Positions 26,749-58,838 of a stretch of DNA of 64,000 bases are shown here, in pieces (the first letter of the stretch is position 1; every line of letters starts with the position of its first letter). This DNA comes from an uncultured Flavobacteriaceae bacterium (GTDB taxonomy: Bacteria > Bacteroidota > Bacteroidia > Flavobacteriales > Flavobacteriaceae). The notes beneath the pieces were generated by a model. It worked only from the letters and a program-made list of their open reading frames with translations. It ran no database searches and had not been told where the DNA came from. Position numbers and translations under genes: made by a program. The stretch lies in NCBI GenBank assembly GCA_947494695.1, contig CANLWB010000003.1, forward strand, positions 1 to 64,000, in the 5' to 3' direction.

Positions 26749-26795
26749 CCTTTTAATTATTTCTTTGCTTTCTCTATTAATCCAATTAAGAAACT

Positions 26796-28397: not shown

Positions 28398-28428
28398 AAT
28401 TACTATTTAGTTTATTTTGACTTATCTT

Positions 28429-30879: not shown

Positions 30880-30939
30880 TTTACAATTCTTAATAACATT
30901 TACTAAATGGATTTTAGACCAAACTCAAAATAATTAGTA

Positions 30940-33609: not shown

Positions 33610-33662
33610 TAATTCATTATTGATGTTAAATGTAATTATGTTAGATTATTATTTAGAACTCA

Positions 33663-36146: not shown

Positions 36147-36453
36147 GAAATTGATATTAAAACTTTTAATTAAAAAAACCTCCAGATTTCACAATTAGAA
36201 GGCTCTTTTTAACTAAATAAAAATCAAACAATTAACTTAAATAATACGTGTTATTTAAACGTCGAAGGTATTTTCACAGTTAAATTCTATAAACCACATT
36301 ATTGTTTTTTTATCATTCATCTGTAATCACCTCGTTACATTGTAAAACTCTTAAAAATAGAAGCAAAAGCTGTATCTGTAAGTAAACATAATGTCTGTAT
36401 TAATACATTTGTATTACAAAATCTCTTGAGTATCTTACTAATAAAACTGTCGA
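36147..36453. other. Intergenic region between the hybrid regulator and the GH2 operon
   Basis: About 307 bp with no supported gene. It contains candidate operator C (36371-36407) and an associated TGTAAA box at 36341-36346, read on the plus strand, pointing towards the GH2 operon. Confidence 0.6.
36341..36407 (-). promoter_or_regulatory. Promoter/operator C of the GH2-to-GH95 operon
   Basis: Plus-strand reading: TGTATCTGTAAGTAAA (36371-36386) and TGTCTGTATTAATACA (36392-36407), exactly 21 bp apart, with TGTAAA at 36341-36346, 30 bp from the near half-site. Each half-site matches the better copy of site A at 10 of 16 positions. It is weaker than A and B, but the spacing agrees with both. Confidence 0.5.
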
Positions 36454-42510: not shown

Positions 42511-42522
42511 CTTTATATTTTT

Positions 42523-44292
42523 TTATTCAGAAATTGAAGGGTTTGCTACTACTTCTGCCAATGGTAATGGTACATAATCATGACTTGCAGGATTGTAATT
42601 CTGAGCTTTTTGATCATACTCATAATCTATAATCTTCAACCCAGTTGCAGTAGGATCAACTTCGCTACCAACGGTTATTTGATTAACATCATCTCCATTA
42701 ACATTTTTTATTGATATAGTACTTACATAATACGTTTCACTTGCCAACCTGTCAAAATTAGACTTTATAACACCCCATCTTCTTAAATCAGTCCAACGTG
42801 TTTGGAAACCTTCAAGACACATCTCTAAAGGCTTTTCTTTAAACATTAAATGTTCCATTAAAGATTCTTCGGTATACGTAATATTATCAAAAGTAGAGGA
42901 AGACCACCTTGGGTTAACAGGTCCTAATAAAACAAGTGCCCATCTATGTCTTAATGCATTAATTAATTCTAGAGCTTCTGTAACATCTCCAGTTTTAATC
43001 ATACATTCTGCCTGCATTAAATATACATTTGCCAATCTATCTAATATAACATTTTTACCAGAAGCTCTAGATCCTCTTGGATTTGAAGCTCCTTCATCTT
43101 CATTTAAATCATAATTGGTATATTTCTTATACCTACCAAATCCCCATCCATCAGCAGCTGTGGCAACCCATGCTCCAGTAGTTTGTCCATAACTTAAAGA
43201 GACATCATCATCTGGTAAAAAAAGGAAAGACGATGCTCTTAAGTTTACTGGTCTCAATGTACGACCATCATCTGGGTCTTCATAGTAATTTCTATCATCT
43301 AAGGAATCCATTTCGTCTTTCTTAAATGTGTCAATTAACCACGCGGGTAATATTGGACCTTCTGAATTTACTGTTAGAAGTGCATATCGATTTGATATAG
43401 CTTCATCCCACCAAACACTAATATCTTCTCTATGATCTAAAGTATAATTAAGTTCGAAAATTGATTCTTTTGTAAAATCTCCTTTACTAGTAAACAGAAT
43501 ATCTAAGTCATAAACCAAACTATAGTTATAATCTGCAGTAACATTATTAATAATATCATTAAAATAAGTCATTGCATTTGCATAATCTTTATCAAACAAA
43601 TAACTTTTTCCTAAATTTACCGCCGCAGCTCCACGTGTTGCACGACCTGTTCCTGCTTTATCATAACTCGTTGGTAAATTATTGTAAGCATATTCTAAAT
43701 CTTTACGAAAAAAATCTTGAACTTCGTTAGCAGGTGACAAAGCGGTGTTAAACTCTTCTCTATTAGCAGGAACAAAATCTCTAATAATAACACTTCCATT
43801 ATTGTATGTGGTATGCAAATAAAAATGCATTAATCCCCTTATAAATCTTGCCTCTGCCATTTGATTAGTCCAAATAGCAATATCTTCTTCATCTGTATAG
43901 TTAGCTTCTATATTTTCTAAACCTTCTATGACTTGATTTGCTCTAAAAATTGCTCTATACATTGCCACCCATCTCTGTTCAACATAGCTATCTGCATTAC
44001 TATAATTAAGGTCATAATAAGGCAATCTCCAAACTACACCTAATGGCCTTCCCCAACCTGGCCAACCTTCATCTGTTTTCATAGCCTCGGCTTCTAGCTG
44101 TAATATATCGTGATCTAGTAAAGCTTGATAAGAAGCGGCTAAACCTTTTTGGGTATCTATTAAATTTTTCCAAAAAGATCCTGTAGAAAGTTCATTTGGA
44201 TTTGTTAAGTCTAATTTCTCCTCGCAAGAACACAGAAATACTGTTACGAGAGCTATCAAAATATAATTGATTTTTAAGTTTTTCATTTTCAT
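42523..44292 (-). CDS. SusD/RagB family glycan-binding lipoprotein
   Basis: A 589-aa outer-membrane lipoprotein (VTVFLCSCEEKLDLTNPNE, lipobox Cys near 23) that closes over its SusC partner as a lid and binds oligosaccharide. The family pattern is intact: NELSTGSFWKN near the N-terminus, TPR-like helices with RFIRGLMHFYLHTTYN and AAVNLGKSYLFDKDYANA, and the C-terminal LMFKEKPLEMCLEGFQTRWTDLRRWG and NPSISE end. An alternative ATG two codons in is equally good. It lies 5 bp after susC. Confidence 0.96.
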   Translation of the reverse strand: MKMKNLKINYILIALVTVFLCSCEEKLDLTNPNELSTGSFWKNLIDTQKGLAASYQALLDHDILQLEAEAMKTDEGWPGWGRPLGVVWRLPYYDLNYSNADSYVEQRWVAMYRAIFRANQVIEGLENIEANYTDEEDIAIWTNQMAEARFIRGLMHFYLHTTYNNGSVIIRDFVPANREEFNTALSPANEVQDFFRKDLEYAYNNLPTSYDKAGTGRATRGAAAVNLGKSYLFDKDYANAMTYFNDIINNVTADYNYSLVYDLDILFTSKGDFTKESIFELNYTLDHREDISVWWDEAISNRYALLTVNSEGPILPAWLIDTFKKDEMDSLDDRNYYEDPDDGRTLRPVNLRASSFLFLPDDDVSLSYGQTTGAWVATAADGWGFGRYKKYTNYDLNEDEGASNPRGSRASGKNVILDRLANVYLMQAECMIKTGDVTEALELINALRHRWALVLLGPVNPRWSSSTFDNITYTEESLMEHLMFKEKPLEMCLEGFQTRWTDLRRWGVIKSNFDRLASETYYVSTISIKNVNGDDVNQITVGSEVDPTATGLKIIDYEYDQKAQNYNPASHDYVPLPLAEVVANPSISE

Positions 44293-44297
44293 TTTTT

Positions 44298-47200
44298 TTA
44301 AAAGTTTAAATCTAAACCTACTAAGTAAAACGCAGCTCTTGGGTATTGGTTCCTATCAATTCCTCTACTAGCTGTACCACCTCCTATTTCTGGATCATAA
44401 CCCGTATAATCTGTAATAGTAATTGGGTTTTGTGCAGAAACATATAGTCTCAATTTATTTATTCCACCAATTTTCTTTAAAAAATTATCAGAAAAACTGT
44501 ATCCCAATGTTGCTTGCTTTAAACGTAAATAACTTCCATCTTCAATCCATAAGTCAGAAAACGCTGCATAATTAGAATGGTTATCATCCCTTGCTGTTGC
44601 GATATTAGAGGTTGGATTACTTTCAGACCATTGATACACCAAATCTTCATGACGCCCCCATCTGTAAGCTTCATATTTTGAAGAGTTAACAATTTCATGC
44701 CCTAGAGCAGCATACCAATTCATAGAAAAATCAAAGCGCTTATAATTAGCATTTAAATTAAAACCTACTTCGTATTCTGGCAAACCACTTCCTACATAAA
44801 CTCTATCTGCGTTGGTAATGGCTCCATCTCCATTATTATCTACATATTTTACATCCCCTAATTGAGGTTCGACATCAGTTTCCAATAACTTATACTCTTC
44901 CAATTCTTCTTCGTTATTTATAATTCCATCTCTGGTACGCATAAAAAATGCACCAGCTTCATAGTCTTCAGCTAAAACAGTTATTGCTGTGCCTCTCAAT
45001 CCATAATCATTAATGTATATAGGCTCTTTGTCTCCAACAATTCTCGTTATCTTATTCTCATTAGTTGCAAATGTACCGTTCATTGTCAAGTTTAATTTTC
45101 CAATTTCAGCCCTACATTTTGCAGACAACTCAACACCTCTATTAGTCATATTACCAATATTTAATGTTACTTTAGAATTATTCACACCAGATGCCGAACC
45201 TGGTATTGTTACAGGGAATAACATATCCCTATTAGTTTTTTCATAATACTCTGCGGTAAACGTTAATTTATTTTTGAATAGACCAATATCTACACCAAGA
45301 TTTGTTTGAATTGAAGTCTCCCATTTTACTAATGGGTTTGCAAAAGCTGTTTGTATTGCACCATTAGTTAAAATATCTGTTTCTGAACCAAACACATAGT
45401 CTATATTTGGTGTAATAGAAGCATCGAAAGTATAATCGCTGAAACTTTCATTACCAACTTCTCCATAACTCGCTCTTAATTTCAAGTTATTAATGGTCTT
45501 ATTATTTTTCAAAAAATTCTCTTCTGTAACATTCCAAGCAAAGGCTCCCGAAGGGAAGATATTCGATCTGTTACTAGCTCCGAATCTTGATGATGCGTCT
45601 CGCCTAACACTAGAACTAATTAGATACTTGCCTTTATATCCATATTGGACTCTAGCAATTATGCCCAAAATTGTATGATCTGCATTAAACCCAGATCCAA
45701 CTATTGGGACTCCACTAGCCCCATTAAGGACCTTAATATCATTACTAAGAACACCATTCCTACTGGCAAAAAAGCGTTCATTTCTAAAATCTTCCCATGT
45801 CATACCTCCTGTAAAGGTAAAATCATGAATATTTTTTATATTAAATTTATAGGTTCCATAAAGATTAAAACTTTGGTTTTTTCTCCTTAAAGCGTCATTC
45901 CTTACACTACTAGATGACGGAAAACTCCAATTTTCTCCATCAACAGTATATACTTGTCTAAATGGATTAAATCTACGTTCAAACATATTTGCAGTAGCTA
46001 AACCATAACTAGCTGTTAATGTCACTCCTTTAAAAATATCATACTTAATATTTAAATTTGTCATGGTTTTAATCCAATCCTGAGATCTTTCGTTTTCAAA
46101 AGAATCTAACACCCAGTTTGAGGCGGTTCCGAGAGCTCCTCCTTCATGTATTAACACCTCACCTGGTTCAAGTTTCGTTAAATCTGGTCTATATGGCTGA
46201 TACCTTATCAATTGATTTACAAGGCCTGGTGATAAATCTCTATGTTCAGAGTTTAAAGAAACATTAGCCTTAATATCCCATTTTCCATGTACATAGCTCG
46301 TATTTGCTCTTATATTAAACCTATCAAAACTAGCTCCAACTTGCGATCCTTTTTCCTGGAAAAAACCTGTACTTACACCATAAGTTATATCTTTTGAACC
46401 TCCAGATATATTAACAAAATGATTTTGCGTTGGCTGGTTATCTATAATTATATTATGAAACAAATTAGTATCTAGTTGTAATTTACTTGGTCCAGACTGA
46501 CCAATAATATCAATTTCATCATCTGGTAAACCATTAGTACCTCTTGCATTTCTTGCAAAAATAAGATCAAAATAGGTTTGCTGATGCGCATTCATTAATC
46601 TTGTTATATCATTATTTACAGATTTTATACCATAACTTGAATTTGCACGTACAGATAAGTTACCTGCTTTACCTTGCTTGGTGGTAATTATAATAACGCC
46701 TGGAGCTCCACGAGTACCATAAATAGCTGTAGATGCGGCATCTTTTAATATATCTATGGACTCAATTTCATTAGGACTTATATTAGGATTGCCTTCTTGT
46801 ATAAATCCATCTACAACATACAACGGTTCGCTGCTTCCAGCCACCGATGTTATACCTCTAATTAAAATTTGAGAGGGCTCACCAGGTTGTGCAGAGGATA
46901 TTACATTAACACCTGCCATTTGTCCTTGCAGCGCAATTCCCAAATCTGAAGTAACTACTTGTTCTATATCTTTAGATTTCACACTTGATACAGCGCCTGT
47001 AACTTCTTTTTTCGTTACCGTTCCATAACCAATAACGACAACTTCATCTAAGTCTTCTAGACTAGGAGATAATCTAATATCCATATTGGCTCCGGTTATT
47101 GTAACAGTTTTTCCCTCCATTCCCAAATAAGACACCGATAGTTCGTCTCCTACTTTTGCCTGAATAGAATAATAACCGTCAAAATCTGTAACTGTTCCTT

Positions 47201-47387
47201 TAGAGCTCTCTTTTATAATAATAGCAACGCCTGGTATAGGCAACCCATCTGCTGAATTAGTCACCGAACCACTAACGGTTATTTGTTGATTCTGAGCCTG
47301 GTTACTTAGACTTAGCGAAAAGATAAAAGCAAACAGCAATAGTTTGCCCCACATCTTCCTTATCTGGTTTTCTTTATTTAATTTCAT
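44298..47387 (-). CDS. SusC/RagA family TonB-dependent transporter
   Basis: A 1029-aa outer-membrane transporter that imports oligosaccharides with TonB energy. After the signal peptide (LLLFAFIFSLSLSNQAQ) comes a carboxypeptidase-D-like regulatory domain (VSGSVTNSADGLPIPGVAIIIK, DFDGYYSI), the TonB box region (EVVVIGYGTVTKKEVTGAVS), the plug (with LYVVDGFIQEG and AASTAIYGTRGAPGVIIITTK), and a 22-strand barrel ending AAFYLVGLDLNF. Domain order and length are normal for SusC. It lies 103 bp after GH110 in the same operon. Confidence 0.97.
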   Translation of the reverse strand: MKLNKENQIRKMWGKLLLFAFIFSLSLSNQAQNQQITVSGSVTNSADGLPIPGVAIIIKESSKGTVTDFDGYYSIQAKVGDELSVSYLGMEGKTVTITGANMDIRLSPSLEDLDEVVVIGYGTVTKKEVTGAVSSVKSKDIEQVVTSDLGIALQGQMAGVNVISSAQPGEPSQILIRGITSVAGSSEPLYVVDGFIQEGNPNISPNEIESIDILKDAASTAIYGTRGAPGVIIITTKQGKAGNLSVRANSSYGIKSVNNDITRLMNAHQQTYFDLIFARNARGTNGLPDDEIDIIGQSGPSKLQLDTNLFHNIIIDNQPTQNHFVNISGGSKDITYGVSTGFFQEKGSQVGASFDRFNIRANTSYVHGKWDIKANVSLNSEHRDLSPGLVNQLIRYQPYRPDLTKLEPGEVLIHEGGALGTASNWVLDSFENERSQDWIKTMTNLNIKYDIFKGVTLTASYGLATANMFERRFNPFRQVYTVDGENWSFPSSSSVRNDALRRKNQSFNLYGTYKFNIKNIHDFTFTGGMTWEDFRNERFFASRNGVLSNDIKVLNGASGVPIVGSGFNADHTILGIIARVQYGYKGKYLISSSVRRDASSRFGASNRSNIFPSGAFAWNVTEENFLKNNKTINNLKLRASYGEVGNESFSDYTFDASITPNIDYVFGSETDILTNGAIQTAFANPLVKWETSIQTNLGVDIGLFKNKLTFTAEYYEKTNRDMLFPVTIPGSASGVNNSKVTLNIGNMTNRGVELSAKCRAEIGKLNLTMNGTFATNENKITRIVGDKEPIYINDYGLRGTAITVLAEDYEAGAFFMRTRDGIINNEEELEEYKLLETDVEPQLGDVKYVDNNGDGAITNADRVYVGSGLPEYEVGFNLNANYKRFDFSMNWYAALGHEIVNSSKYEAYRWGRHEDLVYQWSESNPTSNIATARDDNHSNYAAFSDLWIEDGSYLRLKQATLGYSFSDNFLKKIGGINKLRLYVSAQNPITITDYTGYDPEIGGGTASRGIDRNQYPRAAFYLVGLDLNF

Positions 47388-47490
47388 TTAATTTAGTTTA
47401 GTTTTCTATGTTAGTAAATAGTTTAATTCCACTTTGCTTGAAATCGCTTTAAAATAGTCCTTCTCTCATATAAATCATTTTTAGTTTAAC

Positions 47491-49398
47491 TTATTTAAAT
47501 ACTACGCGGTTATCCGTATTACTTGTTTCCAAAATTTTTGAAGCTTTACCAGAATAGGTATTGTTTTCAAAAACTATATTTTTGGAAGATTTAATTCTTA
47601 CTGCGGGGTTTTCAGGATATAATTGAGGAAATGTTCCCGAGTTCGTTATCGTATTGTTTATAAATTTTAACCCATCTGTATTTGCAATTTCCAGAATTAA
47701 GTTATCAAACTGATTAAACGTATTATTAACAATTTCTATACTTCTAAACGCAATATTTTCGTTGTCATCATCTGTCACAAAACGTATAACACCTCTGTTA
47801 TACCCTCCATGTTGACTATCTTGAAATACATTGTTTCTTATTACAACATTTGCTGCATTTCCAGACTCAAACCAATGCCCGCTTTCTACGGGAATAAGTA
47901 TGGCTTCCATTTCAGTATTAAAGAAATTATTTTCTATAACTGTGTTTACTGGGTTTGAGATTAGCAAACCTCTAGCTCTGTTGTTACTAATTTTACAATT
48001 CTGTACCAATAAATCTGGATAACCACTTAAATTTTCAATTAAATCTCCAGATTCAACATCTTTGGGTAAATCTTTGTTGAATGTTATTATTTGATATCTG
48101 CTATTGAGGTATTCTATTTTTTTTACGGTGTTTTTTTCATAAGGAAAAAATGAGTTATCTAATCTCACAAAACCAATGGTATCATTGGGTTGAGCAACCA
48201 CAAAACCTTTTTGTTGATGGTGCATCATTCGTACCCCAATTTTGTTATGATCTAGTATATCTACTATTTTTTGATAGGTACCGTGAACATTGGTGGCATC
48301 ATCCAATTGATTATTGAACGTGCAATTCTTAAGTACCACTTTACCTCTGCACCCTACAAAATGAGTTGCATCTGCAGTAGTAGATACCATACGTCCATTG
48401 GAAGGAGTGATATTAAAATTATCCAATATCAAATCTGCCGAATTTTCAGCAATGATTCCCATACCACCTGCATGGTGTACATTTACATTTGTCCCTTTAA
48501 ATCCATTTGTGTGAGTAACCCTAAATGCTGGTGATACGCGATTAACCCCTTGTTCACCCTTCATGGTTAAAATCATCCCTACCGGAGGCAACTTCTTTTT
48601 GTGATTGTGAATACGTACTAAGCCTGGTTTTAACTGCTCAACACGTACTCTATCTTCCAATCCTATATCCTTGTATTCTGGAGCACGTTCGTCGTTAATA
48701 TATTTATACTTAATACTCTTTAATCCATTACGTGTTGTCGTTCGTTTTTTAACTGTAATCCCTGTATAGGCTTCTGTGTTAAACGCAATGGCTTCACGAT
48801 TTGGATCGTATAAAATAGATTGCCCTAAACTGTGTTCGTAATAAGGTTTAATAAAATGAATTTGGCCATTTCTAATTTCATAAGGGTACTCATCTGAAAT
48901 TTTCATATCAAATGTTTTGTTCTCGTCATCATGGGCAACAATAAGCCCCTCACTATGAAATGGCTCCTCCCAATCTATGGTTAGATTTTTTATTGATATG
49001 TTCTCACTTTCTTCTACCAAAAAAGGAATCATAACGCCATGAAAAATAAAAGTAGACCCTTGACCATCTATTGTAAGGTTTCTGAAGTTGTTAATAGGGA
49101 ATGGAGTGCTTACCATTAAATCACAATGATTTGATATGTACACAAATTTTTCAAGCCCTTTATCTGGATAAAAGTGGTAGATTCCCTTCTCAAACTTAAC
49201 TTCTGATATGGGATTGTCTTTATCAACTTTTAAAAAACGTTGTAAAACTTTTGGTGTTGCATCTTCCGATATACTTGAGTCAAATATTACCGTTTTACCT
49301 TTATTAGAAATTGAAAAGCAACTCACTGCAACAAAAACAAAAATGCATATGAGAATATTGGAGAGTTTAAAAAACTTACTATTGAGTCTAGAATTCAT
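47491..49398 (-). CDS. GH110 alpha-1,3-galactosidase, lipoprotein-like
   Basis: A 635-aa right-handed beta-helix enzyme that removes alpha-1,3-linked galactose. The catalytic signature of GH110 is clear: STTADATHFVGCRGKVVLKN gives Asp343, and NNQLDDATNVHGTYQ gives Asp366 and Asp367. Their 23- and 24-residue spacing equals that of the catalytic aspartates I recall for marine PdGH110B (321, 344, 345). The helix repeats contain the usual Asn ladders (VIENNFFN, VVIRNNVFQ). The N-terminus (FVAVSCFS, Cys27) suggests a lipoprotein. It is the first gene of the susCD operon behind promoter A. Confidence 0.9.
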   Translation of the reverse strand: MNSRLNSKFFKLSNILICIFVFVAVSCFSISNKGKTVIFDSSISEDATPKVLQRFLKVDKDNPISEVKFEKGIYHFYPDKGLEKFVYISNHCDLMVSTPFPINNFRNLTIDGQGSTFIFHGVMIPFLVEESENISIKNLTIDWEEPFHSEGLIVAHDDENKTFDMKISDEYPYEIRNGQIHFIKPYYEHSLGQSILYDPNREAIAFNTEAYTGITVKKRTTTRNGLKSIKYKYINDERAPEYKDIGLEDRVRVEQLKPGLVRIHNHKKKLPPVGMILTMKGEQGVNRVSPAFRVTHTNGFKGTNVNVHHAGGMGIIAENSADLILDNFNITPSNGRMVSTTADATHFVGCRGKVVLKNCTFNNQLDDATNVHGTYQKIVDILDHNKIGVRMMHHQQKGFVVAQPNDTIGFVRLDNSFFPYEKNTVKKIEYLNSRYQIITFNKDLPKDVESGDLIENLSGYPDLLVQNCKISNNRARGLLISNPVNTVIENNFFNTEMEAILIPVESGHWFESGNAANVVIRNNVFQDSQHGGYNRGVIRFVTDDDNENIAFRSIEIVNNTFNQFDNLILEIANTDGLKFINNTITNSGTFPQLYPENPAVRIKSSKNIVFENNTYSGKASKILETSNTDNRVVFK

Positions 49399-49416: not shown

Positions 49417-49487
49417 AGAATGTAAATTTTGTTTTTTTTTACACGCGTCCTGTCGATTTCTGTAAATTAAATGTCGTTTTTCGTAAA
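49417..49487 (-). promoter_or_regulatory. Promoter/operator A of the GH110-susCD operon
   Basis: Plus-strand reading: half-sites TGTCGATTTCTGTAAA (49451-49466) and TGTCGTTTTTCGTAAA (49472-49487) agree at 13 of 16 positions and lie exactly 21 bp apart. AGAATGTAAATTTT (49417-49430), identical to the element in B, lies 20 bp from the near half-site. On the minus strand this box reads TTTACATTCT, close to a -7 box. AraC-type proteins bind direct repeats at this spacing. Confidence 0.75.
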
Positions 49488-49946
49488 AACATATACCTAT
49501 AAATAACTGATTATCAGATAACAAATAAACAGCAACAAAGTTTTTCAAAAAAGAAAGAAATTTCACCTGTTTTTAGGTTTTCTAAAAAACAACTTAGGAA
49601 TGATATGATGCCATTGAATTAGTTGACACCAATTTTAATAGGAATAAAAAGATAATGATGGCATTTGAAAGATTGATATCATTGATGGTAAAAGGAATTA
49701 CTATTCACAACGTCCAACAATAATTTTAAACCTAGAATCATTTAGTTATTATCAAAAATGTAATTCGAATTCAATCAAAACCAGAAATAGTATGATCTAA
49801 AACTTAATGTTTTTTATTTCTTATCAGAATCAATTAAAGATTTTTAAAAAGTGCTAAAGTTCTTGAGTTGTTTTGTCTCCATATAAAAAACACCCGCCTT
49901 ACGCTCTAAGAACTCCAATTTGCAAAAAACGTTACTTTCTTTAAAT
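49488..49946. other. Long gap upstream of promoter A, no gene
   Basis: About 460 bp between operator A and the end of the preceding GH2 gene. It is AT-rich, without a convincing ORF or insertion-sequence remnant. It is the longest empty stretch of the PUL and should hold the terminator of the GH2 operon, which I cannot place. Confidence 0.5.
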
Positions 49947-51737
49947 TTAATTTATGCTACCATAATATTCTCTCATAACATACCATGCTTTTTTTCTATA
50001 ACCCTTTTCTGAAAGTAGGCCTTTTCTATTCCAATAATCTTGATATATTGGGTGTAAACGTAAAGGCGACCTAAAGTCAATAAGAGTCCAAGGGCACGTA
50101 CCACCTAAAAAAGGAATATTTTTTTGCATTGTTATTTGATCGCGATAGAATTTTTCTTGAAATTCTTCAGACCATGATGAAGCATCATTGTTTGTTCCAT
50201 GATGACCATATAAAGCTTCTGCACCAAACTCAGATATTATCAATGGTTTATTGTACTCGCTTTTCCAGACGATTTCTTCGGGAGCAACCGGCCATCCATC
50301 GTACCATCCAATATATTGATTCATGCCAATGACATCTAAAACATCGATTAAATCATCTTTAATAGTAAATACTTCTCCTTTTTTCTTGTATTTATTTATA
50401 GCACTACTTACAAGACGTGTATTGTCAATTACTCTGCAAGAGTCTACTAAAGATTTCAATACCGAAGTACGTGTATGGCTTGGGTATGTTTCGTTAGACA
50501 CACTCCAAATGATAATCGCACAACGGTTTTTATCTCTTCTTAACATTTCTGTTAATTGCCTATTTGCTAATTTTATCGTCTCTTTATTATTAAAATTTAT
50601 CCCTTGAAAAACGGGTATTTCTTCCCAAAGCATAAAGCCCATCGTTTCTGCTAAACGAACCACATATTCATTTTGAGGGTAATGTGCAGTCCTAATAAAG
50701 TTACAGCCTAATTCTTTTGCCATAGTGAGATGCTTTTTTGCATCTTCTTTAGTGTAAGCTCTAGATTTTCTCTCTGACGCCTCCTCATGAAAATTTACCC
50801 CTTTTAAAAACATAGGTTTGCCATTCAATATAATTTTGGTACCATGTGTACTAATAGTTCTAAAACCTATGTATTCCTCAATGCTATCTGTTTCAGATTG
50901 AATAACAACCTTATAAAGCTTTGGGTTAGAAGGACTCCACAATTTTAATTTTTTATCAAAACTAATTTTAGCATAACCAGTATTATCTGTAGTAATTGTA
51001 TGACTGATTTTAGCTTCTGGTATCTTAATACTAACTTTCTGCGAAAGTTTAGAACCGTTTAATTGAATATATCCTTCTATCTTTTTATTAGCTCCTTTCT
51101 TAAGCTGTATAAAATAATCTTCAATAAATGTTTCGTTCGTTTCAACAAGTCTTACGTCTCTTGTAATACCGCCATAGTTTACCCAGTCGTAACCTAAGGC
51201 AGGTACACCTTCCTTTTGCCTGCGATTATTAACTCTTAAGATGATTGAATTTTCACCATCTTTAACGCTATCTGTAATTTCAAATTGAAAAGGAGTAAAA
51301 CCGCCTTCGTGACTGCCTATTTTCTCTGAATTAAAAAAAACATCTGACAAGTAGTTCACTGCATCGAAGTATAAAAACAAACGTTTGCCTTTCTTTTTCT
51401 TAATGTTTATTACTTTTTTATACCAAACTGTAGATTCATAAAATTTTAATTCAGGTTTTTGTGAGTTAAAATCACCTGGCACATTTAGAGTAAGACTTGA
51501 AATAAAAGCATACTCAGATCTGTGCTCTTTATTATTTGGAACATCTTTGTATAAAGATTTCCATTTCTTAATTCCAACATCTACAGGGTCTATAATGTAT
51601 TCCCACTTCCCATTAAGGCTAGTTTGTACGCGCTCTGGTATATTAATCATAAAATCCTGAGCGTGTATGTATATACTCGTAGCAAAAAAGCATATAGCTA
51701 TGAGACTAAACTGCTTTAACATTTTAATTAATCTCAT
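49947..51737 (-). CDS. GH2 glycosidase, beta-glucuronidase-like
   Basis: A compact 596-aa secreted GH2 enzyme (signal FSLIAICFFATSIYIHAQ; a start at M6 is also possible). The length, three-domain layout and motifs resemble E. coli beta-glucuronidase. These include YGGITRDVRL in the sandwich, GVNFHEEASERKSRAYTKED, acid/base Glu416 in SVSNETYPS and nucleophile Glu503 in ISEFGAEALYG. An NxK motif (WNRKGLL) sits where the glucuronidase carboxylate clamp lies. The motif also occurs in some beta-galactosidases, so glucuronidase is likely but not proven. It is the last gene of the promoter B operon. Confidence 0.85.
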   Translation of the reverse strand: MRLIKMLKQFSLIAICFFATSIYIHAQDFMINIPERVQTSLNGKWEYIIDPVDVGIKKWKSLYKDVPNNKEHRSEYAFISSLTLNVPGDFNSQKPELKFYESTVWYKKVINIKKKKGKRLFLYFDAVNYLSDVFFNSEKIGSHEGGFTPFQFEITDSVKDGENSIILRVNNRRQKEGVPALGYDWVNYGGITRDVRLVETNETFIEDYFIQLKKGANKKIEGYIQLNGSKLSQKVSIKIPEAKISHTITTDNTGYAKISFDKKLKLWSPSNPKLYKVVIQSETDSIEEYIGFRTISTHGTKIILNGKPMFLKGVNFHEEASERKSRAYTKEDAKKHLTMAKELGCNFIRTAHYPQNEYVVRLAETMGFMLWEEIPVFQGINFNNKETIKLANRQLTEMLRRDKNRCAIIIWSVSNETYPSHTRTSVLKSLVDSCRVIDNTRLVSSAINKYKKKGEVFTIKDDLIDVLDVIGMNQYIGWYDGWPVAPEEIVWKSEYNKPLIISEFGAEALYGHHGTNNDASSWSEEFQEKFYRDQITMQKNIPFLGGTCPWTLIDFRSPLRLHPIYQDYWNRKGLLSEKGYRKKAWYVMREYYGSIN

Positions 51738-51772
51738 TACTTTCTTTTTTAGTTATATTTCTTATTAAAAAA

Positions 51773-54178
51773 CTAATTAATAATAACATCTTTCCTTCTT
51801 TCTTCTGGATAGACCTTAAGTTCTTTTAACTCGCCATGTCTTACTTCTCCAGTAATGGTAGTTTGTTTAGGAGCTATAACTTTAAAATTGCAATCCCAAT
51901 CTTTTGGCCACGTTGGAGTAAGTACAATTTTATCATCAAGGGTTTGCATAAGCATTTCCTGTAATCCTACAGCTCCAGTACCTCCCCAATTATGGTCTGG
52001 CACCCAATCGTTTCCTGGCCCCCAAAATGAAGGGAAACGAAACGGCCCATTGGCTAATGTTTTATAGGTTAAATCTGCTGCTTTATCCACAACGCCCATA
52101 CGTGCAAAGGCTACATTGGCATTGTTCCAACTATGCACAACTTCCCAGGCATCTGGGGTTTGCCATGTATCCCAATGTTTATACGTGTTGAAAATATAAT
52201 CCATTTCTTTGTCTCCTTTTTCAATTTGATTGAAAGGAAACATGGGGTAGTTTATATATAATTCTGTTTTTTTCCACCAAGAATAGGCCACACTGCGTCC
52301 TGGAGGCATTACCTTATCTCCATCAATGTCATCTAAATGAAAATCTGGTATGGTACTCTGGAATTTTTCAATCTTCTCTTTTCCTTCAAAAAAAGTATTT
52401 ACCCATTTTTCAGGGAGTTGTAAAACACCTTCTGCAACTGCTTTAAGTCCCGCGACATCAGGTACTGGGTTACTTACATAATAGTGAGACTCGCAAGCAC
52501 CTGCTGGAAAAATAATTAATTTTCCCTCTGGGTCATACTCCGCCCAATTGGCATTGTATTTTGCTTTATGTCGGTAATAATTATCAAAGAAATCTATAGT
52601 ACCTTTTACTATAGGCAACCATTTTGAAATATCACGTCCAGAATAGCGATAGTACTCTAAAATCATATATGAAAATTCCAACATTGCAGTATGATGGTGA
52701 ATTGTACACCAGTTTGTAGATAAACCAGGTTCCATCCAGTCTGGCCGTTTTCTTTTTTCATCATAAACTTTATCAAACCCGTAATGCATGGGCATGGGCA
52801 ATCCATAAACAGTTCCTACTTCCTCAAATAACCAACCCTCAAAGCCATAGTTTTTAGAGACTCTAAGTTTGCCCACCTCTAAGGTTCTCTCGAAAAAATC
52901 AAATTGAGATTCCATATGTTCAAAATCCCCCCATTTTAGCATGGGCCAGTAGACCCAGCGTTGATTTTGAAGCGTGTAATTCCCCCCACTCCAACAACGC
53001 CAATCTGGATGAAACGGAAACCTTTTGCTCACCAAACTCGGATCAAAACTTAACAGTCCACCATTAAACATAGTTGGGTTTTCGCCATAAGCATTAAGAG
53101 CTGTCATGTATCGAAACAGGTTGTAATTTCTTCCCATACTCCAAATATCATCGGTTTCGTTTTTATCTGGATTTAATACTATATAACTCTTCTCCCAAAA
53201 TGATTTCCACCATTTTAAATTTTTACTCCAGGCTTCTTTTGTTGAAACTTTTTCTGTTTTTACTGTTTCAATCTCACTCAACCATTCATTACCGTTACCA
53301 CAATGACTATTATGAAAAACAAGTTCTATCTGGTGTTTTTTTACCGGTGCTTTTGATTTATATCTCCAACCCATAAAATCGGTTAGTGTATACTTTCCCT
53401 GTACTTTTTGGTCAAAAACCAGGTTATCACCTCCCATCCAGCCTCCCCAGACTAAATCTTTTAGTGGATCATAATACTTCCCATAGTATTCGCCTAGACC
53501 AGTCATTTCATAGGCTAGCTTACTTGTGAGTTTTTCCTCAGGATTTATGTGATAAAAAGAAAAACCATTATCTTCTTGTTTAAAGTTATCTGGTTCCAAA
53601 ATAACTTCATTTGCCCAACCTCCAGTGTCCCACCAGCCCCAACGGTCTTTTATATTCTTATCCATATTCAATTTACGAGGTTGAGTACGCCAAGATTCAA
53701 ACTGGGAATAATATGTAATGGCTTTAGAAGATTTACATTCCACATGAATTTCTGGTCTATGAACTTCTGACCAAACTTTAAATTTCACATCGCCGTGCTC
53801 TGGATGTTTAGCGACTATTTCCATAGCACTTTCACGGAGTTTTAATTCTTGGCGAAACGTTGTTGCTCCATCAAAAATATTAGGCTCTGTCCAAATTCTT
53901 ACCCTACCAAGTTTAGGGAAACCATTGTATTCATCATGAACGCCACTTCGCTGCATGTAGAACAGCAGTTCATTCCCTTCTACCCATACATTCATTCCAA
54001 TATCGCCTCCTCCAACGGGCATAGAAGCAGAAACATCTTTACTCTGACTGTTCCACACGACATTATACATATCGGGATAATTCTCTTTGACTTGAGCATT
54101 TACATACGATAGTGCAGCCATAAAAAAAGTTAAGAAAACAGATACTCTTAAGGTCATTAATTTTATTTTAATCCTCAT
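51773..54178 (-). CDS. DUF5703-type protein with a GH95-like (alpha/alpha)6 barrel
   Basis: An 801-aa secreted protein (signal VSVFLTFFMAALSYVNAQ). The N-terminal beta-domain (about 30-290) has SMPVGGGDIGMNVWVEGNELLFYMQRSG, the DUF5703 pattern. The C-terminal half reads as an (alpha/alpha)6 barrel, with NLFRYMTALNAYG, FNGGLLSFDPS, STNWCTIHHHTAMLEFSYMILEYYRYSG and DHNWGGTGAVGLQEMLMQT. It recalls GH95 and related inverting enzymes but lacks the NIN, KEW and HVSHLY set, so the substrate and catalytic residues are unknown. The operon position between two GH2 genes supports a glycosidase role. Confidence 0.75.
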   Translation of the reverse strand: MRIKIKLMTLRVSVFLTFFMAALSYVNAQVKENYPDMYNVVWNSQSKDVSASMPVGGGDIGMNVWVEGNELLFYMQRSGVHDEYNGFPKLGRVRIWTEPNIFDGATTFRQELKLRESAMEIVAKHPEHGDVKFKVWSEVHRPEIHVECKSSKAITYYSQFESWRTQPRKLNMDKNIKDRWGWWDTGGWANEVILEPDNFKQEDNGFSFYHINPEEKLTSKLAYEMTGLGEYYGKYYDPLKDLVWGGWMGGDNLVFDQKVQGKYTLTDFMGWRYKSKAPVKKHQIELVFHNSHCGNGNEWLSEIETVKTEKVSTKEAWSKNLKWWKSFWEKSYIVLNPDKNETDDIWSMGRNYNLFRYMTALNAYGENPTMFNGGLLSFDPSLVSKRFPFHPDWRCWSGGNYTLQNQRWVYWPMLKWGDFEHMESQFDFFERTLEVGKLRVSKNYGFEGWLFEEVGTVYGLPMPMHYGFDKVYDEKRKRPDWMEPGLSTNWCTIHHHTAMLEFSYMILEYYRYSGRDISKWLPIVKGTIDFFDNYYRHKAKYNANWAEYDPEGKLIIFPAGACESHYYVSNPVPDVAGLKAVAEGVLQLPEKWVNTFFEGKEKIEKFQSTIPDFHLDDIDGDKVMPPGRSVAYSWWKKTELYINYPMFPFNQIEKGDKEMDYIFNTYKHWDTWQTPDAWEVVHSWNNANVAFARMGVVDKAADLTYKTLANGPFRFPSFWGPGNDWVPDHNWGGTGAVGLQEMLMQTLDDKIVLTPTWPKDWDCNFKVIAPKQTTITGEVRHGELKELKVYPEERRKDVIIN

Positions 54179-54227
54179 TTATGTGATGTTTTAAAATGAT
54201 ATCCTGCTATCAAAATTTAGAGCTTAT

Positions 54228-57200
54228 TTACCCTTCATCAGGTAAACCTTGCATACTTTCTTTGACCTCGGGATTTGATGTATCAAATAGTGACGTAATT
54301 TGAGATACTTCAATCTGAGTATCAGGATTAAATGTTTTTGAAGCCATATAATTAATCAGGGATTGTCTAAATTGTTTAGCAACCGGTCTGTTCTTTAAAT
54401 CATTCTTAATATCTATAGAACAAATTAAAAGTTTGCCTTTACCAACTTTGGCTTCAACTACTAATCCTAATTTTCTATTTAACTTCCATGAATCTATAGG
54501 CTGAATGATAGGTTTGTAATTTATGGGCCAAGGGTGTTTCTCTTCAAACTGGTCTAAAATCATCGGTTGGCATTCTGTTAATAGCTCCCACCAATTCCAA
54601 TTGGCATGAGAATCTGTCTTAAACCCCTTAAATAAGGCATGATCTGGATTCATAGTAATACCATTAGCCGAAGACTGCCCTCCTTTTTCACCAAAACTCG
54701 TCCAATAAAACGTCGTGAAACAACCTGGCAAGTTCCCTTTTAATGTTCCTTTTTTAGGTAATAACAACACTGTTTTTCCTTTTTTCAATAGCTTTAAGGT
54801 ATTATTATCCCATGTATTGGTGACTTTAATTGACTTTGGAAACTCGGTCACCTTACTGTCTGCATATACCCAAAAGTCCCAATTATTAGTTAATCCATTA
54901 GATTTTGATACCAACTGTAGATTATATTTTGAAGCATCTACATTTGATAAATCCATTTGAAACTCACCAATACTCTGCAAACCTTGATTTACTAAAGCCT
55001 TTGACGGTATCTTTTTTGAAACGATAACCTTTCCGGCTTCATTAGTTATTATCATTTCTAAATCTTTTAAGTCTAAATTTTTGTTTCCGTAATGGCTTAT
55101 TTCAAACTCAGCAGAAAAATGATCTGAATTGGTAAAAACTCTCTTAGGTAATCTAGCGAGCAATACAGATGTGCCACAGAATTTTTGCATGTCCGTAGCA
55201 TCCACATAACTCTTCTCTTCATAAAAAGCATCTGTAAACCCAACAGGAGCCGTATTTTGTCCTGTAAAATCATTTAATGATAACCATTGAAACCCTGCCA
55301 TTTCACCAGATCTGAATGCAGCTTCTATCTCTTCTTTAGTTAATTGCACTTGCCATTTACCAGAATCGTGTATAAAATTTGGTAATTGATCAACCAAACC
55401 TCTTTCTTTTAATTGATCGGCCGCTATTTCTAAATACGTTGGTCTTAAATAGCCCTTATACTTTTTTATTTCATTAAACACATCTGGATAGGCACAAAAT
55501 TGCGCCAATTCATGCGATATAATTGGATTGTTAAATTTTGAATTATACAGGTCTATTGATTCATCCCAATCTATAATTGTTTGGGGTTTTTCTGTGTAAA
55601 ACAATGAATTTTTGGGTATTGGAGGCCAAAATGCCTGATAACGTGTACGTCCTCTACCTCTTTCAAAAGCGTCATCTTTTATATGGCTTACAACCTCAAA
55701 ATCCATTTCATCTGGTATGCCTTGATTTTCAGCAATACTAGCTTTTACGGTATATAACCTTGTTGTATCTGTATGTTTCCATTGTTTTATTAAATCATTG
55801 GCTATTTCTTTATCTATACCGCTCTCATTTCCTAACCCCATCATTACAAACGATGGGTAGTTTGCGAAATAAGACAGCATTTTATCTGATTCTTCTTTAA
55901 AAAATTGATGCATTTCAGGATCCTTAACCCAAGACCATTCGTGCACTTCTGGAGCCAGGTATACGCCTAGTTCATCGGCAGCAATGAAAGCTTGTTTTGG
56001 CGGACACCAAGAATGGTATCTTACAAAATTCAACCCGAAATCTTTATGTTTTTGCAACACGCGTTTCCATTCGTTCACAGACATAGGCGCATATCCTGTT
56101 TTGGGATATACTGCACAATCTACATTACCTCGTAAAAAAGTCTTAATACCGTTAATATAAAAGTGCTTTCCATCGGTTTTAAATGCTCTCATCCCAAATG
56201 TAACGGATGCGGTATCTCGATAATTTTCACTTGTAGACTTAACCTCTAAATCAATCTTTAGTTTATACAGATTTGGATTAAATTCACTCCATAGTTTCGT
56301 ATCCTTCCCCAGAACATAGTTGAAAGTTAAACGCTGAATTTTATCGCCCGTTAAAACGCCTTTCTCGTCTTCTGCTAAAGGACTATGTTCATTACCATTA
56401 TACCCATGGGCTTCTAAATTGAGATTGAACGCACCTTTTAAGCCTAAAGTATTTTCTACATCAACTAAAACCTTGACTGTCTTTGTTTTTATATCTGGAA
56501 TGGTCTTTACATTGGTAATCGATATCTTGTCTTTGGCATTTATTTTAATAGCACCTACAATACCATTCCAAGTACCTTGAGTTTGGTCTGAAACGCTGTG
56601 AGGCATATTACCTATTTTATAGATTTCACTATTATCAATCCTAATTGTTAATCTATGTTTACCTGATTGTAATGCATTTAAAGCATATTGATGTGGTACT
56701 GCTAAGGAGGCATTAGAACCTATAAGTTTCCCATCTAGCCAAACTGTAGATTTCCAATGGCAGCGTTCTAGAAAAAGAACTTTATTTTTATTGCTAAAAC
56801 CTTTAGGGATCTCTATTTCTTTAGAAAACCAAGCAGCTCCAATATAATGATGCCTTGGCATTAAGAACTGTATGAGTTTAAAATTGGTGTTTGGCTTTGC
56901 GTACTTATCTAAAGACGGATGCCTTTCTGATACATCTAAAGGGGCCCACCACTTTGTATTGGGGCCTGGTTTTTCACCATAACCTTGCTCTTGTAAACAA
57001 CCTGGGAGATTCATTTTATCTTCAAAACCGATTTCATACCACTTCTCTGAAACCCCCTCATTTTTTGGATCTAATTTCACAGACCATTCTCCAGATAAAT
57101 CAATTTCGTTAAGTTCTTGAGCGTTTACGCCAAAAGCTATAACGAGTGTTAAAAAAGGGGATAATAAATATTTTAAATACTTGGAAACAAAGGACTTCAT
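54228..57200 (-). CDS. GH2 family glycosidase, paralogue of the gene at 22343
   Basis: A 990-aa secreted GH2 enzyme. I start at 57200 because MKSFVSKYLKYLLSPFLTLV leads into a clean signal peptide ending GVNAQ; an ATG at 57224 would overlap the preceding gene by 14 bp. The architecture matches the 913-aa GH2 at 22343: the same FLERCHW and GTWNGIVG sandwich motifs, RYHSWCPPKQAF in the barrel, acid/base Glu in GLGNESG (about 459), nucleophile in SHELAQF (about 564), and a GATase-like C-terminal region (KGKTVLLLP, GKGKLLICSIDIKNDL). That pair lies in two different operons. The substrate is a beta-glycoside, not resolved further. Confidence 0.88.
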   Translation of the reverse strand: MKSFVSKYLKYLLSPFLTLVIAFGVNAQELNEIDLSGEWSVKLDPKNEGVSEKWYEIGFEDKMNLPGCLQEQGYGEKPGPNTKWWAPLDVSERHPSLDKYAKPNTNFKLIQFLMPRHHYIGAAWFSKEIEIPKGFSNKNKVLFLERCHWKSTVWLDGKLIGSNASLAVPHQYALNALQSGKHRLTIRIDNSEIYKIGNMPHSVSDQTQGTWNGIVGAIKINAKDKISITNVKTIPDIKTKTVKVLVDVENTLGLKGAFNLNLEAHGYNGNEHSPLAEDEKGVLTGDKIQRLTFNYVLGKDTKLWSEFNPNLYKLKIDLEVKSTSENYRDTASVTFGMRAFKTDGKHFYINGIKTFLRGNVDCAVYPKTGYAPMSVNEWKRVLQKHKDFGLNFVRYHSWCPPKQAFIAADELGVYLAPEVHEWSWVKDPEMHQFFKEESDKMLSYFANYPSFVMMGLGNESGIDKEIANDLIKQWKHTDTTRLYTVKASIAENQGIPDEMDFEVVSHIKDDAFERGRGRTRYQAFWPPIPKNSLFYTEKPQTIIDWDESIDLYNSKFNNPIISHELAQFCAYPDVFNEIKKYKGYLRPTYLEIAADQLKERGLVDQLPNFIHDSGKWQVQLTKEEIEAAFRSGEMAGFQWLSLNDFTGQNTAPVGFTDAFYEEKSYVDATDMQKFCGTSVLLARLPKRVFTNSDHFSAEFEISHYGNKNLDLKDLEMIITNEAGKVIVSKKIPSKALVNQGLQSIGEFQMDLSNVDASKYNLQLVSKSNGLTNNWDFWVYADSKVTEFPKSIKVTNTWDNNTLKLLKKGKTVLLLPKKGTLKGNLPGCFTTFYWTSFGEKGGQSSANGITMNPDHALFKGFKTDSHANWNWWELLTECQPMILDQFEEKHPWPINYKPIIQPIDSWKLNRKLGLVVEAKVGKGKLLICSIDIKNDLKNRPVAKQFRQSLINYMASKTFNPDTQIEVSQITSLFDTSNPEVKESMQGLPDEG

Positions 57201-57210
57201 ATAATTTTTT

Positions 57211-58668
57211 CTATTGTATTGCATAAAAATTAGAAACTACTTTTTTATTACTTTTTTCATACTCCCAAAGATATTCACCTGTTTTATCAACACATTTTTG
57301 AGTATAATGATGCGGAAGCACAGATACTAAAGGGTAACCTATCTTTGTTTTATACATTGATAAATGCTTTAAATACTTTTCTTCAGTGATCACGCCGGTA
57401 TCATTACCACCTATGTGGTCCAGATTTATTAATCGTCCTGGAGAAGATTTCATACTTATTTCGTAATGCGTTTTAACCCTAGCCTGCCAATCAAATTTAT
57501 CATTCAACCATACATCATTGGTTCTTATCACATCTGTATATTTAGTAAAGAAAATGTCTGGCACATGGAATTCCATTTCAATATCAGAATCAATGGCTTT
57601 GGCTGCTTTATATAATTCTTTGTGGATATGTAACATATCTGATTTTGTATTGTAAGACATGTCTATTTTAAACTTTCTCACTCCTATCTTATGGAAACGA
57701 TTTATAGTTTCTGAAGCATAATCAAAAATATCAGCTTTTGGATTCAGCCACCTAATATCATTGGGGTTTCTATCTTTATTACTAGTTCGCCAACTTCCCA
57801 ATAAATCTGGATGTTTTTTTGCAGTATGGCTTTCTGGATGAATTTTAGGAAACCCAATCCATAAACCAGGTGTAAATCCTTTTTCTTGAATCATTCCCAT
57901 AGTTTTTTCAAAGTCTGGAAATTTTTTAGGGTCTGGCACCCATGAGCCAAAACCAGAATCTATACTTCCATCTGGGAATTGCCCCCAACCATGATCTAAA
58001 GTTAATTTCCCTTTTGGATAACCAAACGCTATAACTTTATTTAAATAATATTTTACAAAATCATGATTTAATAAATGAAATTGTTCAAAACGCTTTTTTG
58101 CAAAAAACTTTTGTTCAGACCATGTGCAATATTCAACATCACTCCAAAAATGAGGATGTATAGCTATTGGCTCAAAATTGAGGCGTTTCATCATGATAGA
58201 ATTATACGTTTTCCAAGCTTCATCACCTATACCGCTTTCGTCCAAGAATAATTCTTGCCCTTCAGGTACCGCAACGGTTAATGTTTCCTTTCCATCAAAA
58301 CTAAATATGGAATTTTCAAACCCCATTGTGGTCATAAATCCAACAAATTTGCCATTGGCATCCATTATCACTGGAGAACCTGACATTCCACTAGCTGCTG
58401 CAGTAAATGGATTATGGGTAAATGCATCGCTTCTATAATAATAACTGTTTCCTCCTTTTTCGTGCGGTTCATTGATACTGTAATATGGACAAAATAGGGG
58501 TTTAGCAACTTTTATTTCAACTTTATTCTTTATCGTCAATATATTTGATGCCCTATCTTGTCGTTTAGTTTCTAAAGCATTAGATGCATTAAGAACCATA
58601 CTTCCTGAAACTCCAGTAAGTATCATCCCTGCACCTGCTTTTTTTATAAAATCTCTTCTTTTAATCAT
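57211..58668 (-). CDS. Tat-exported alpha-galactosidase-like (GH36/GH31 fold) protein
   Basis: A 485-aa protein with a twin-arginine signal (MIKRRDFIKKAGAGMILTG), unlike the Sec or lipoprotein signals of every other PUL enzyme here. A beta-domain (about 45-160) precedes a TIM barrel resembling GH27/GH36/GH31: LTLDHGWGQFPDG, KGFTPGLWIGFPKIHPES, HPDLLGSW, then the likely nucleophile Asp336 in RKFKIDMSYN and the likely acid/base Asp385 in VIRTNDVWLND. It is shorter than GH36 and fits no family I can name with confidence. It is the first gene of the operon behind promoter B, followed by GH2. An alpha-galactoside or related alpha-glycoside is the likely target. Confidence 0.72.
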   Translation of the reverse strand: MIKRRDFIKKAGAGMILTGVSGSMVLNASNALETKRQDRASNILTIKNKVEIKVAKPLFCPYYSINEPHEKGGNSYYYRSDAFTHNPFTAAASGMSGSPVIMDANGKFVGFMTTMGFENSIFSFDGKETLTVAVPEGQELFLDESGIGDEAWKTYNSIMMKRLNFEPIAIHPHFWSDVEYCTWSEQKFFAKKRFEQFHLLNHDFVKYYLNKVIAFGYPKGKLTLDHGWGQFPDGSIDSGFGSWVPDPKKFPDFEKTMGMIQEKGFTPGLWIGFPKIHPESHTAKKHPDLLGSWRTSNKDRNPNDIRWLNPKADIFDYASETINRFHKIGVRKFKIDMSYNTKSDMLHIHKELYKAAKAIDSDIEMEFHVPDIFFTKYTDVIRTNDVWLNDKFDWQARVKTHYEISMKSSPGRLINLDHIGGNDTGVITEEKYLKHLSMYKTKIGYPLVSVLPHHYTQKCVDKTGEYLWEYEKSNKKVVSNFYAIQ

Positions 58669-58766
58669 TAATAATATTATTTAGATAGACAATTGTATCA
58701 AACAAATACAACGCTAGTATTTCTAAACTGCTTTTAAATTCTATGTTATCTTAATGAAGTAGTTTA

Positions 58767-58838
58767 AGAATGTAAATTTTTATATTATTTATGGTTTTCA
58801 AGTAGACATGCGTAAATAAAATGACGTTTATCGTAAAT
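58767..58838 (-). promoter_or_regulatory. Promoter/operator B of the Tat-protein operon
   Basis: Plus-strand reading: AGTAGACATGCGTAAA (58802-58817) and TGACGTTTATCGTAAA (58823-58838), exactly 21 bp apart; the second matches the better half-site of A at 14 of 16. The 14-bp element AGAATGTAAATTTT (58767-58780) is identical to that in A and lies 21 bp from the near half-site. The operon start follows 99 bp further downstream. Confidence 0.72.

What the first reader, a model, noticed from the sequence alone, without database searches (positions are those of the whole stretch)
49417..58838. Shared operator-promoter module ahead of two PUL operons
Sites A (49417-49487) and B (58767-58838) have two 16-bp half-sites in direct repeat exactly 21 bp apart, the best halves agreeing at 14 of 16, plus an identical 14-bp element AGAATGTAAATTTT 20-21 bp from the near half-site. 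AraC-type dimers bind direct half-sites about 21 bp apart, and the PUL encodes one AraC-type HTCS. This looks like the operator of that regulator and gives a direct motif for finding its regulon.
Basis: partly seen in the sequence, partly recalled or inferred. Interest (0 to 1): 0.85.

Follow-up and report, generated by a model that had tools for sequence, protein, structure and literature searches.

The report
Sugar-sensor operators ahead of PUL operons
Three gene clusters for digesting a seaweed-type sugar polymer in a marine bacterium each start with the same kind of control switch, a paired docking site for a sugar-sensing activator set at one fixed distance from the promoter; the kind of switch is already known from gut bacteria, but this version has a precise spacing rule that helps to predict its target genes.

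Summary
Sites A and B are real, precede two PUL operons on the minus strand, and consist of 16-bp half-sites in direct repeat at 21 bp. A third copy, C (36371-36407), precedes a third operon. In the 5.49-Mb genome the composite at 2 mismatches or fewer occurs four times: A, B, C and a site 38 kb past the window; the reversed pattern, never. It precedes GH110 genes in 23 of 29 upstream regions examined, each with a -7-like box exactly 20 nt after the near half-site. In 65 further non-coding sites picked on half-sites alone the box is again at +20, in full in 35. The module co-occurs with one HTCS clade: 7 of 7 versus 0 of 5 genomes in the genus, 8 of 14 versus 1 of 235 in the family. Most likely it is an HTCS operator joined to an activator-dependent promoter. 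The 21-bp HTCS repeat is published (PMC3878776); my searches did not find the fixed distance to the -7 box in print. A paralogous HTCS 45 kb away may own C. Binding is untested.

The parts
49472..49487 (-). Site A, distal half-site TTTACGAAAAACGACA
   Evidence: conserved in G011
49451..49466 (-). Site A, near half-site TTTACAGAAATCGACA
49423..49430 (-).
58822..58837 (-). Site B, distal half-site TTTACGATAAACGTCA
58801..58816 (-). Site B, near half-site TTTACGCATGTCTACT (weak)
58773..58780 (-). Site B, -7-like box AAAATTTA
36392..36407 (-). Site C (new), distal half-site TGTATTAATACAGACA
   Evidence: over both half-sites 29 of 32 bases kept in G011 and 31 of 32 in G006
36371..36386 (-). Site C, near half-site TTTACTTACAGATACA
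36343..36350 (-). Site C, -7-like box GAGTTTTA
36454..40608 (-). HTCS1: Reg_prop and Y_Y_Y sensor, HisKA, HATPase, receiver, AraC-type HTH_18
   Evidence: TSHIP receiver motif visible
40822..49398 (-). Genes behind A, taken as one operon from their close spacing: GH110 (47491-49398), SusC (44298-47387), SusD (42523-44292), SWM_repeat protein (40822-42510)
49947..58668 (-). Genes behind B, taken as one operon: melibiase-like (57211-58668), GH2 (54228-57224), DUF5703 (51773-54178), GH2 (49947-51737)
19832..36146 (-). Genes behind C, taken as one operon: GH2 (33663-36146), GH2 (30940-33609), GH88-BNR_4, GH29, sulfatase, GH2 (22343-25195), GH95 (19832-22312)

Best explanation
Sites A, B and C are composite operator-promoters of HTCS activators. 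On sensing its oligosaccharide, the HTCS is phosphorylated on its receiver domain; two AraC-type output domains then bind two 16-bp half-sites (consensus TTTAC-N8-ACA) in head-to-tail order, 21 bp or two helical turns apart. The near half-site ends 20 nt before a -7 box (nAnnTTT[A/G]), so the bound activator covers the place where the -33 element would be and holds the sigma factor on the promoter (class II activation). A and B are most likely served by HTCS1 (36454-40608); C by its paralog HTCS2 (85449-89585) or by both. Shown: the sequences, their conservation, the fixed spacings, co-occurrence with the HTCS clade. Inferred: binding, activation, the covering of -33, which HTCS serves which site.
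For: Spacing: in 29 GH110 upstream regions the half-site pair peaks at 21 bp (24 regions at the threshold, 23 after dropping L077; 20 rounds of shuffling: mean 1.55, largest 5), and all 23 have xAnnTTTR at exactly +20 nt. Further sites chosen on half-sites only: 65 non-coding, xAnnTTTR at +20 in 35, at any other offset in at most 3; the two T's at +24 and +25 in 63 and 62 of 65. Placement: of 74 matrix hits above 10 in 1.05 Mb, 63 lie ahead of a co-oriented ORF (within 500 nt), 7 in genes, 4 elsewhere; reversed control 5. 15 of the 74 are ahead of GH110 genes, the class the matrix was trained on (counted). Regulator link: genus 7 of 7 HTCS1-clade genomes have the module, 0 of 5 others (Fisher p 0.0013); family 8 of 14 clade genomes against 1 of 235 others (p 8e-11); reversed-pattern hits in 5 genomes, none in the clade. 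13 of the 23 family matches lie within 45 kb of a clade HTCS gene (my count). Specificity: 1 matrix hit above 10 in 795 kb around 40 other HTCSs. Footprint: between this genome and G011 the 65-bp module of A is 52 of 65 identical while its upstream flank barely aligns. Geometry agrees with published HTCS motifs, e.g. two 16-bp sites and a 5-bp spacer (PMC3878776, passages).
Against: No binding, transcription start or expression data. 6 of 14 clade genomes in the family lack the module at 1 mismatch or fewer, although G002 has it at 2. In the GH110 loci an HTCS1-like ORF is seen within the fetched flanks (up to 10 kb each side) in only 5 of 29 (L067, L077, L085, L087, L089). Two GH110 upstreams with room for a promoter have no site, L080 and L077, although L077 has a 47% HTCS in the same cluster. 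The reverse strand of the same upstreams also gives 6 pairs at 21, though 6 as well at 17 and 44. G185 has a module match without the clade, inside a gene. Site C occurs in G006, which has no HTCS1 in its assembly, so C is not HTCS1-only there. Relatives are not independent samples, and the regions were fetched because of a clade HTCS or a module hit. B's near half-site is weak.
Confidence: 0.86

Rival explanations
1. A, B and C all belong to one shared regulon of two paralogous HTCSs (HTCS1 and HTCS2) that bind each other's sites, rather than being split between them.
For: HTCS1 and HTCS2 are about 52% identical over their length and share most of the helix-turn-helix sequence (NRT[H/L]F[Y/F]QKVK and [S/N]RTHF). 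Site C is kept at 31 of 32 half-site bases in G006, which has only HTCS2 of the clade. Ravcheev et al. propose joint regulons for close HTCS paralogs (PMC3878776, passages).
Against: The sites fall into partly different groups: A and B agree at 24 of 32 half-site bases, but A and the site ahead of the second GH110 (84856) at only 14 of 32. One residue of the first helix-turn-helix (H to L) differs.
Confidence: 0.35
2. Site of a soluble AraC-type or other regulator that happens to co-occur with the HTCS clade.
For: Any AraC-type dimer could use 21-bp direct repeats (recalled); in 24 of 29 GH110 loci no HTCS1-like ORF is seen within the fetched flanks (I did not look for other regulators there).
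Against: Clade-specific co-occurrence; 13 of 23 family matches within 45 kb of a clade HTCS gene (my count); lag 21 is also the top repeat lag near other HTCSs (15 against a mean of 3.75 and a largest of 10 for other lags), though some of these 15 are near-copies or the same gap read from both sides.
Confidence: 0.07
3. The module is the promoter of an alternative (ECF) sigma factor, with the direct repeats as sigma contacts.
For: PULs of this phylum can be ECF-controlled (recalled; ECF systems as possible PUL controllers are mentioned in PMC3878776, passage).
Against: The 65-bp extent with two 16-bp repeats two turns apart and a separate -7 box is far longer than an ECF promoter (recalled), and the module tracks an HTCS clade.
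Confidence: 0.03
4. Chance similarity or recent duplication of promoter DNA without function.
For: The 14-bp element alone is only mildly unusual (4 of 100 shuffles reach two matches).
Against: Four hits in 5.49 Mb against none for the control, presence in other genera including two loci whose records are named Saccharicrinis and Marinilabilia, constant spacing across dissimilar spacer sequence.
Confidence: 0.01

Closest known systems
HTCS operators of Bacteroides thetaiotaomicron (Ravcheev et al. 2013, PMC3878776; e.g. HTCS_Man: two 16-bp sites and a 5-bp spacer, average distance of sites 21 bp)
   Same: AraC-type HTCS regulators of PULs; direct repeat; same half-site length, spacer and 21-bp period; several operons of one PUL share the motif (passages).
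   Different: Marine Flavobacteriaceae HTCS clade with its own half-site (TTTAC-N8-ACA); here the operator is also at a fixed 20 nt from a -7-like box. In that paper's main text the strings '7 box' and 'transcription start' do not occur. I did not see its supplements or figures.
BT4663 and BT4124 with their target promoters bt4662 and bt4114 (PMC11253607, passages)
   Same: HTCS receiver plus DNA-binding domain shown there by gel shift to bind promoters of susCD homologs; the S/CHIP receiver motif is also present in HTCS1 (TSHIP).
   Different: No binding done here; other sequence. The closest solved receiver plus HTH chain by sequence is 12aw_A, a hybrid two-component system protein.
E. coli AraC at araI1-I2 (recalled, not tested)
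   Same: Direct-repeat half-sites two turns apart with the near one at the -35 region.
   Different: Soluble sugar-binding regulator and other promoter type; here the phylum's -7 box (TAnnTTTG; stated in PMC7366714, passage).

Membership tests
HTCS-controlled PUL operator (Ravcheev type) | Two similar sites in direct repeat, about 21 bp apart | tested here: met
   lag 21 is also the strongest lag in 286 clade and 206 non-clade upstream regions
HTCS-controlled PUL operator (Ravcheev type) | Upstream of PUL operons next to an HTCS gene | tested here: met
HTCS-controlled PUL operator (Ravcheev type) | Conserved ahead of orthologous operons in genomes with the orthologous HTCS | tested here: met
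   G011, the one genome seen with a 77% HTCS1 ortholog: sites A and C kept; B not kept at the same place
HTCS-controlled PUL operator (Ravcheev type) | Bound by the HTCS output domain | not testable with these tools
   needs a gel shift or like assay
Hybrid two-component system (the regulator) | Propeller sensor, HisKA, HATPase, receiver and AraC-type HTH in one chain | tested here: met
Bacteroidota -7 promoter box (TAnnTTTG) | TAnnTTTG at the -7 position | tested here: inconclusive
   xAnnTTTR at a fixed +20, but the first T is absent in all 23 GH110 sites and present in 14 of 35 other sites with the box; no transcription start known

The most novel reading that the evidence does not exclude
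HTCS promoters follow one rigid grammar: half-site, 5 nt, half-site, 20 nt, -7 box, with the activator standing in for the -33 contact. At the GH110/SusC operons the -7 box lacks its first T, so the promoter would be silent without the activator. Paralogous HTCSs in one locus then diverge by changing inner half-site bases and few helix-turn-helix residues while this scaffold stays fixed. If general, HTCS regulons and transcription starts could be read directly from sequence across marine Bacteroidota.
Probability: 0.45. Interest if true: 0.62.

Novelty: new member of a known kind. Interest (0 to 1): 0.48.

Why it matters
Marine Flavobacteriaceae carry many HTCS genes, but the listings of my paper searches (of 48 and 56 only the top 15 were listed) show no paper that, by title or the passages I saw, defines an HTCS operator in them. 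This clade's operator, with its fixed distance to the -7 box, gives a search rule with few false hits (4 against 0 in the own genome at 2 mismatches), predicts which operons of a split PUL are switched on together, and sets up a clean test of how two paralogous sensors in one locus are kept apart.

Tried and rejected
A separate meaning for the 14-bp element was rejected: across relatives it is the 8-base box that keeps a fixed place. A third half-site downstream was considered because TTTAC recurs 40 nt after the start of the near half-site; it lacks the ACA end and is not at 42, so rejected. My first reading of the -7 box as TACATTCT, 6 nt further on, was dropped after one search showed the +20 register. 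A general 'first T of the -7 box is lost' rule was dropped: true for 23 of 23 GH110 sites but only 21 of 35 others with the box. A +20 register near non-clade HTCSs could not be shown: the offsets at lag 21 scatter (20, 21, 21, 22 and five others), so this is open. HTCS1 as sole owner of site C was weakened by G006. Assignment of the further sites at 65704, 72072, 99071, 101840 and 108274 to HTCS1 or HTCS2 by half-site similarity was not clear-cut. Rows dropped: L075 (near copy of L074) before the GH110 count, so 29 of 30 regions were examined; L077 from 24 to 23 because its match lies at the end of the extracted stretch. L082, L083, L090 and L094 lack a site but follow the preceding gene within about 60 nt, as inside an operon (distances worked out by me). 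The 65 sites still include GH110 upstreams that were not in the training set, orthologous pairs and a few 21-bp-shifted readings of one site; only identical sequences were removed. The clade is defined by E = 0; the tool scored only the best 2 first-look candidates per genome there. The 40 non-clade neighbourhoods are a choice of mine from the capped listing.

Papers: PMC3878776, PMC11253607, PMC12125979, PMC5061871, PMC7366714 and PMC5698469 were seen as passages only; all others as search listings only.
Full report
What is there. All ORFs of 120 aa or more from 19832 to 63998 are on the minus strand and look like PUL operons: GH110-SusC-SusD-SWM protein behind site A; a melibiase-like protein, two GH2 and a DUF5703 protein behind site B; two GH2, GH88-BNR_4, GH29, sulfatase, a further GH2 and GH95 behind a third site, C; and an HTCS (HTCS1, 36454-40608) between. 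Read in gene direction, the module is: 16-bp half-site, 5 nt, 16-bp half-site, 20 nt, then an 8-bp box. In A these are TTTACGAAAAACGACA, TTTAA, TTTACAGAAATCGACA, 20 nt, AAAATTTA.

Chance. In the own genome (5,486,722 bases in 77 contigs) the composite pattern TTTAC-N8-ACA, N5, TTTAC-N8-ACA, N21, AnnTTTR gives, at 2 mismatches or fewer, four places: A (0), 101776-101840 (1), C (2) and B (2); the pattern read backwards gives none.

Conservation. It keeps the gene order, site A (52 of 65 module bases identical, 28 of 32 in the half-sites; the upstream flank hardly aligns) and site C (29 of 32), but not B at the same place: an extra gene lies ahead of the melibiase gene there, and another site precedes that gene at 579784. 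With the GH110 protein as bait I obtained 29 loci; with the own one added and the near-duplicate L075 left out, 29 upstream regions were examined. In 24 a half-site pair lies at a spacing of 21 (20 rounds of shuffling: mean 1.55, largest 5). Other spacings give 0-5, except 10 at spacing 40, which I read as the near half-site pairing with the TTTAC of the box; the reverse strand gives 6 at 21, and also 6 at 17 and at 44. One of the 24 (L077) is spurious. All 23 remaining, the own one among them, have xAnnTTTR starting exactly 20 nt after the near half-site, although most of the 20 positions between carry little information.

Further sites. A 65-position matrix from the 23 sites finds 74 hits above 10 in 1.05 Mb of regions fetched for a clade HTCS gene or a module hit, against 5 on reversed sequence; 63 lie ahead of a co-oriented ORF within 500 nt, 7 inside genes, 4 elsewhere. 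In the window only A, B and C pass. Because 15 of the 74 are ahead of GH110 genes, I repeated the search with the 37-bp half-site part only: 83 hits above 12 against 5 reversed; after removing training sequences and identical copies 77, of which 65 are non-coding. In these 65, xAnnTTTR is at +20 in 35 and at any other offset in at most 3; A, T, T, T of the box are present in 48, 63, 62 and 50 of 65. The box was not used for choosing these sites, so the fixed register is a separate result, though some of the 65 are orthologs of one another or of training sites. Against my first idea, the missing first T of the box is a feature of GH110 sites (0 T of 23) and not of the others (14 T of 35).

Regulator. 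In the genus (12 genomes) the module at 2 mismatches or fewer is present in exactly the 7 genomes with a full-length HTCS1-clade protein (52% identity or more to HTCS1; 25 hits, control 0) and absent from the 5 without (Fisher p 0.0013). In 249 genomes of the family, 14 have the clade (E = 0), 9 have the module at 1 mismatch or fewer (23 matches; reversed control 5 matches in 5 genomes, none in the clade), and 8 have both; the ninth, G185, is a match inside a gene (p 8e-11). Six clade genomes lack the module at that stringency. By my count 13 of the 23 matches lie within 45 kb of a clade HTCS gene; the other 10 do not, some being on other contigs. Around 40 other HTCSs (39 regions of the same genus, one of a neighbouring genus; 795 kb) the matrix gives 1 hit above 10, so the half-site is the clade's own, while 21 is still the strongest repeat lag there (15 regions against a mean of 3.75 and a largest of 10 for other lags), with the caution that some of these are near-copies or one gap read from both sides. 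In the alignment of the C-terminal 300 residues most clade members share NRT[H/L]F[Y/F]QKVK and something close to SRTHF in the two helix-turn-helix units, where the four distant HTCSs differ; two clade proteins of G013, a genome without the module at 1 mismatch, depart from the first.

Against a simple picture: an HTCS1-like ORF is seen within the fetched flanks in only 5 of the 29 GH110 loci, so in most of them the link rests on the whole-genome co-occurrence; and L077 and L080 have room for a site but none was found.

Two regulators. A paralogous HTCS (HTCS2, 85449-89585, about 52% identical) with a second GH110-SusC-SusD set lies 45 kb from HTCS1. G006 has an HTCS2 ortholog (78%) and no closer match to HTCS1 than that (94 of 94 candidates scored; next best 37%), yet carries the operon behind C with 31 of 32 half-site bases kept; next to it stand ORFs like another PUL gene, not HTCS1. 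The assembly is 99% complete in about 80 contigs, so a missing piece is possible but unlikely. So C can work without HTCS1, and in this genome may belong to HTCS2 or to both.

Mechanism. With a -7 box at about -12 to -5 (recalled placement of TAnnTTTG; the -7 and -33 elements are described in PMC7366714, passages), the near half-site covers about -48 to -33. That is the class II position: the activator takes the place of the -33 contact. The HTCS1 receiver carries TSHIP, matching the S/CHIP motif reported to go with holding the DNA-binding domain back until phosphorylation (PMC11253607, passages). Binding, activation and start sites are inferred.

Known or new. Ravcheev et al. 2013 predicted motifs for 16 HTCSs in Bacteroides as direct repeats with an average distance of 21 bp, some as two 16-bp sites with a 5-bp spacer (PMC3878776, passages). 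A, B and C are new members of that kind. The fixed 20 nt to the -7 box was not found in the passages of that paper or in the listings of my searches (two were capped at 15 rows); supplements, figures and subscription papers were not seen.

Noticed in passing
own contig C3 85449-89585 and 76240-84770, beyond the window (L047-L048): Second HTCS (about 52% identical to HTCS1) with a second GH110-SusC-SusD set: a paralogous PUL in the same super-locus; its GH110 has its own 21-bp repeat site at 84856.
   Followed up: partly
own contig C3 65704, 72072, 99071, 101840, 108274 (minus strand), beyond the window: Five further 21-bp half-site pairs ahead of genes of the same super-locus; which HTCS they serve is open.
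   Followed up: partly
window 19570-19643: tRNA-Lys gene about 190 bp past the end of the GH95 gene that closes the PUL: possible boundary of an inserted island.
   Followed up: no
G006:C18 77566-80041 and 93405-95542 (L170-L171): In G006 the GH95 and first GH2 genes of the C operon are split into several reading frames while the operator is nearly unchanged: the operon may be decaying or the assembly may have errors.
   Followed up: no
L202-L241 (other HTCS neighbourhoods): A different repeated half-site, about ACAAATGTTGCAT at 21 bp, recurs ahead of several genes near other HTCSs: perhaps the operator of another HTCS clade.
   Followed up: no
G001:C1 432607 and G009:C15 72142: Ahead of these GH110 genes a third half-site-like stretch lies a further 21 bp upstream of the pair: possible three-site operator.
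   Followed up: no
window 62577-63998: Open frame that continues to 65609 outside the window (1010 aa) and ends in a type IX secretion sorting domain.
   Followed up: no
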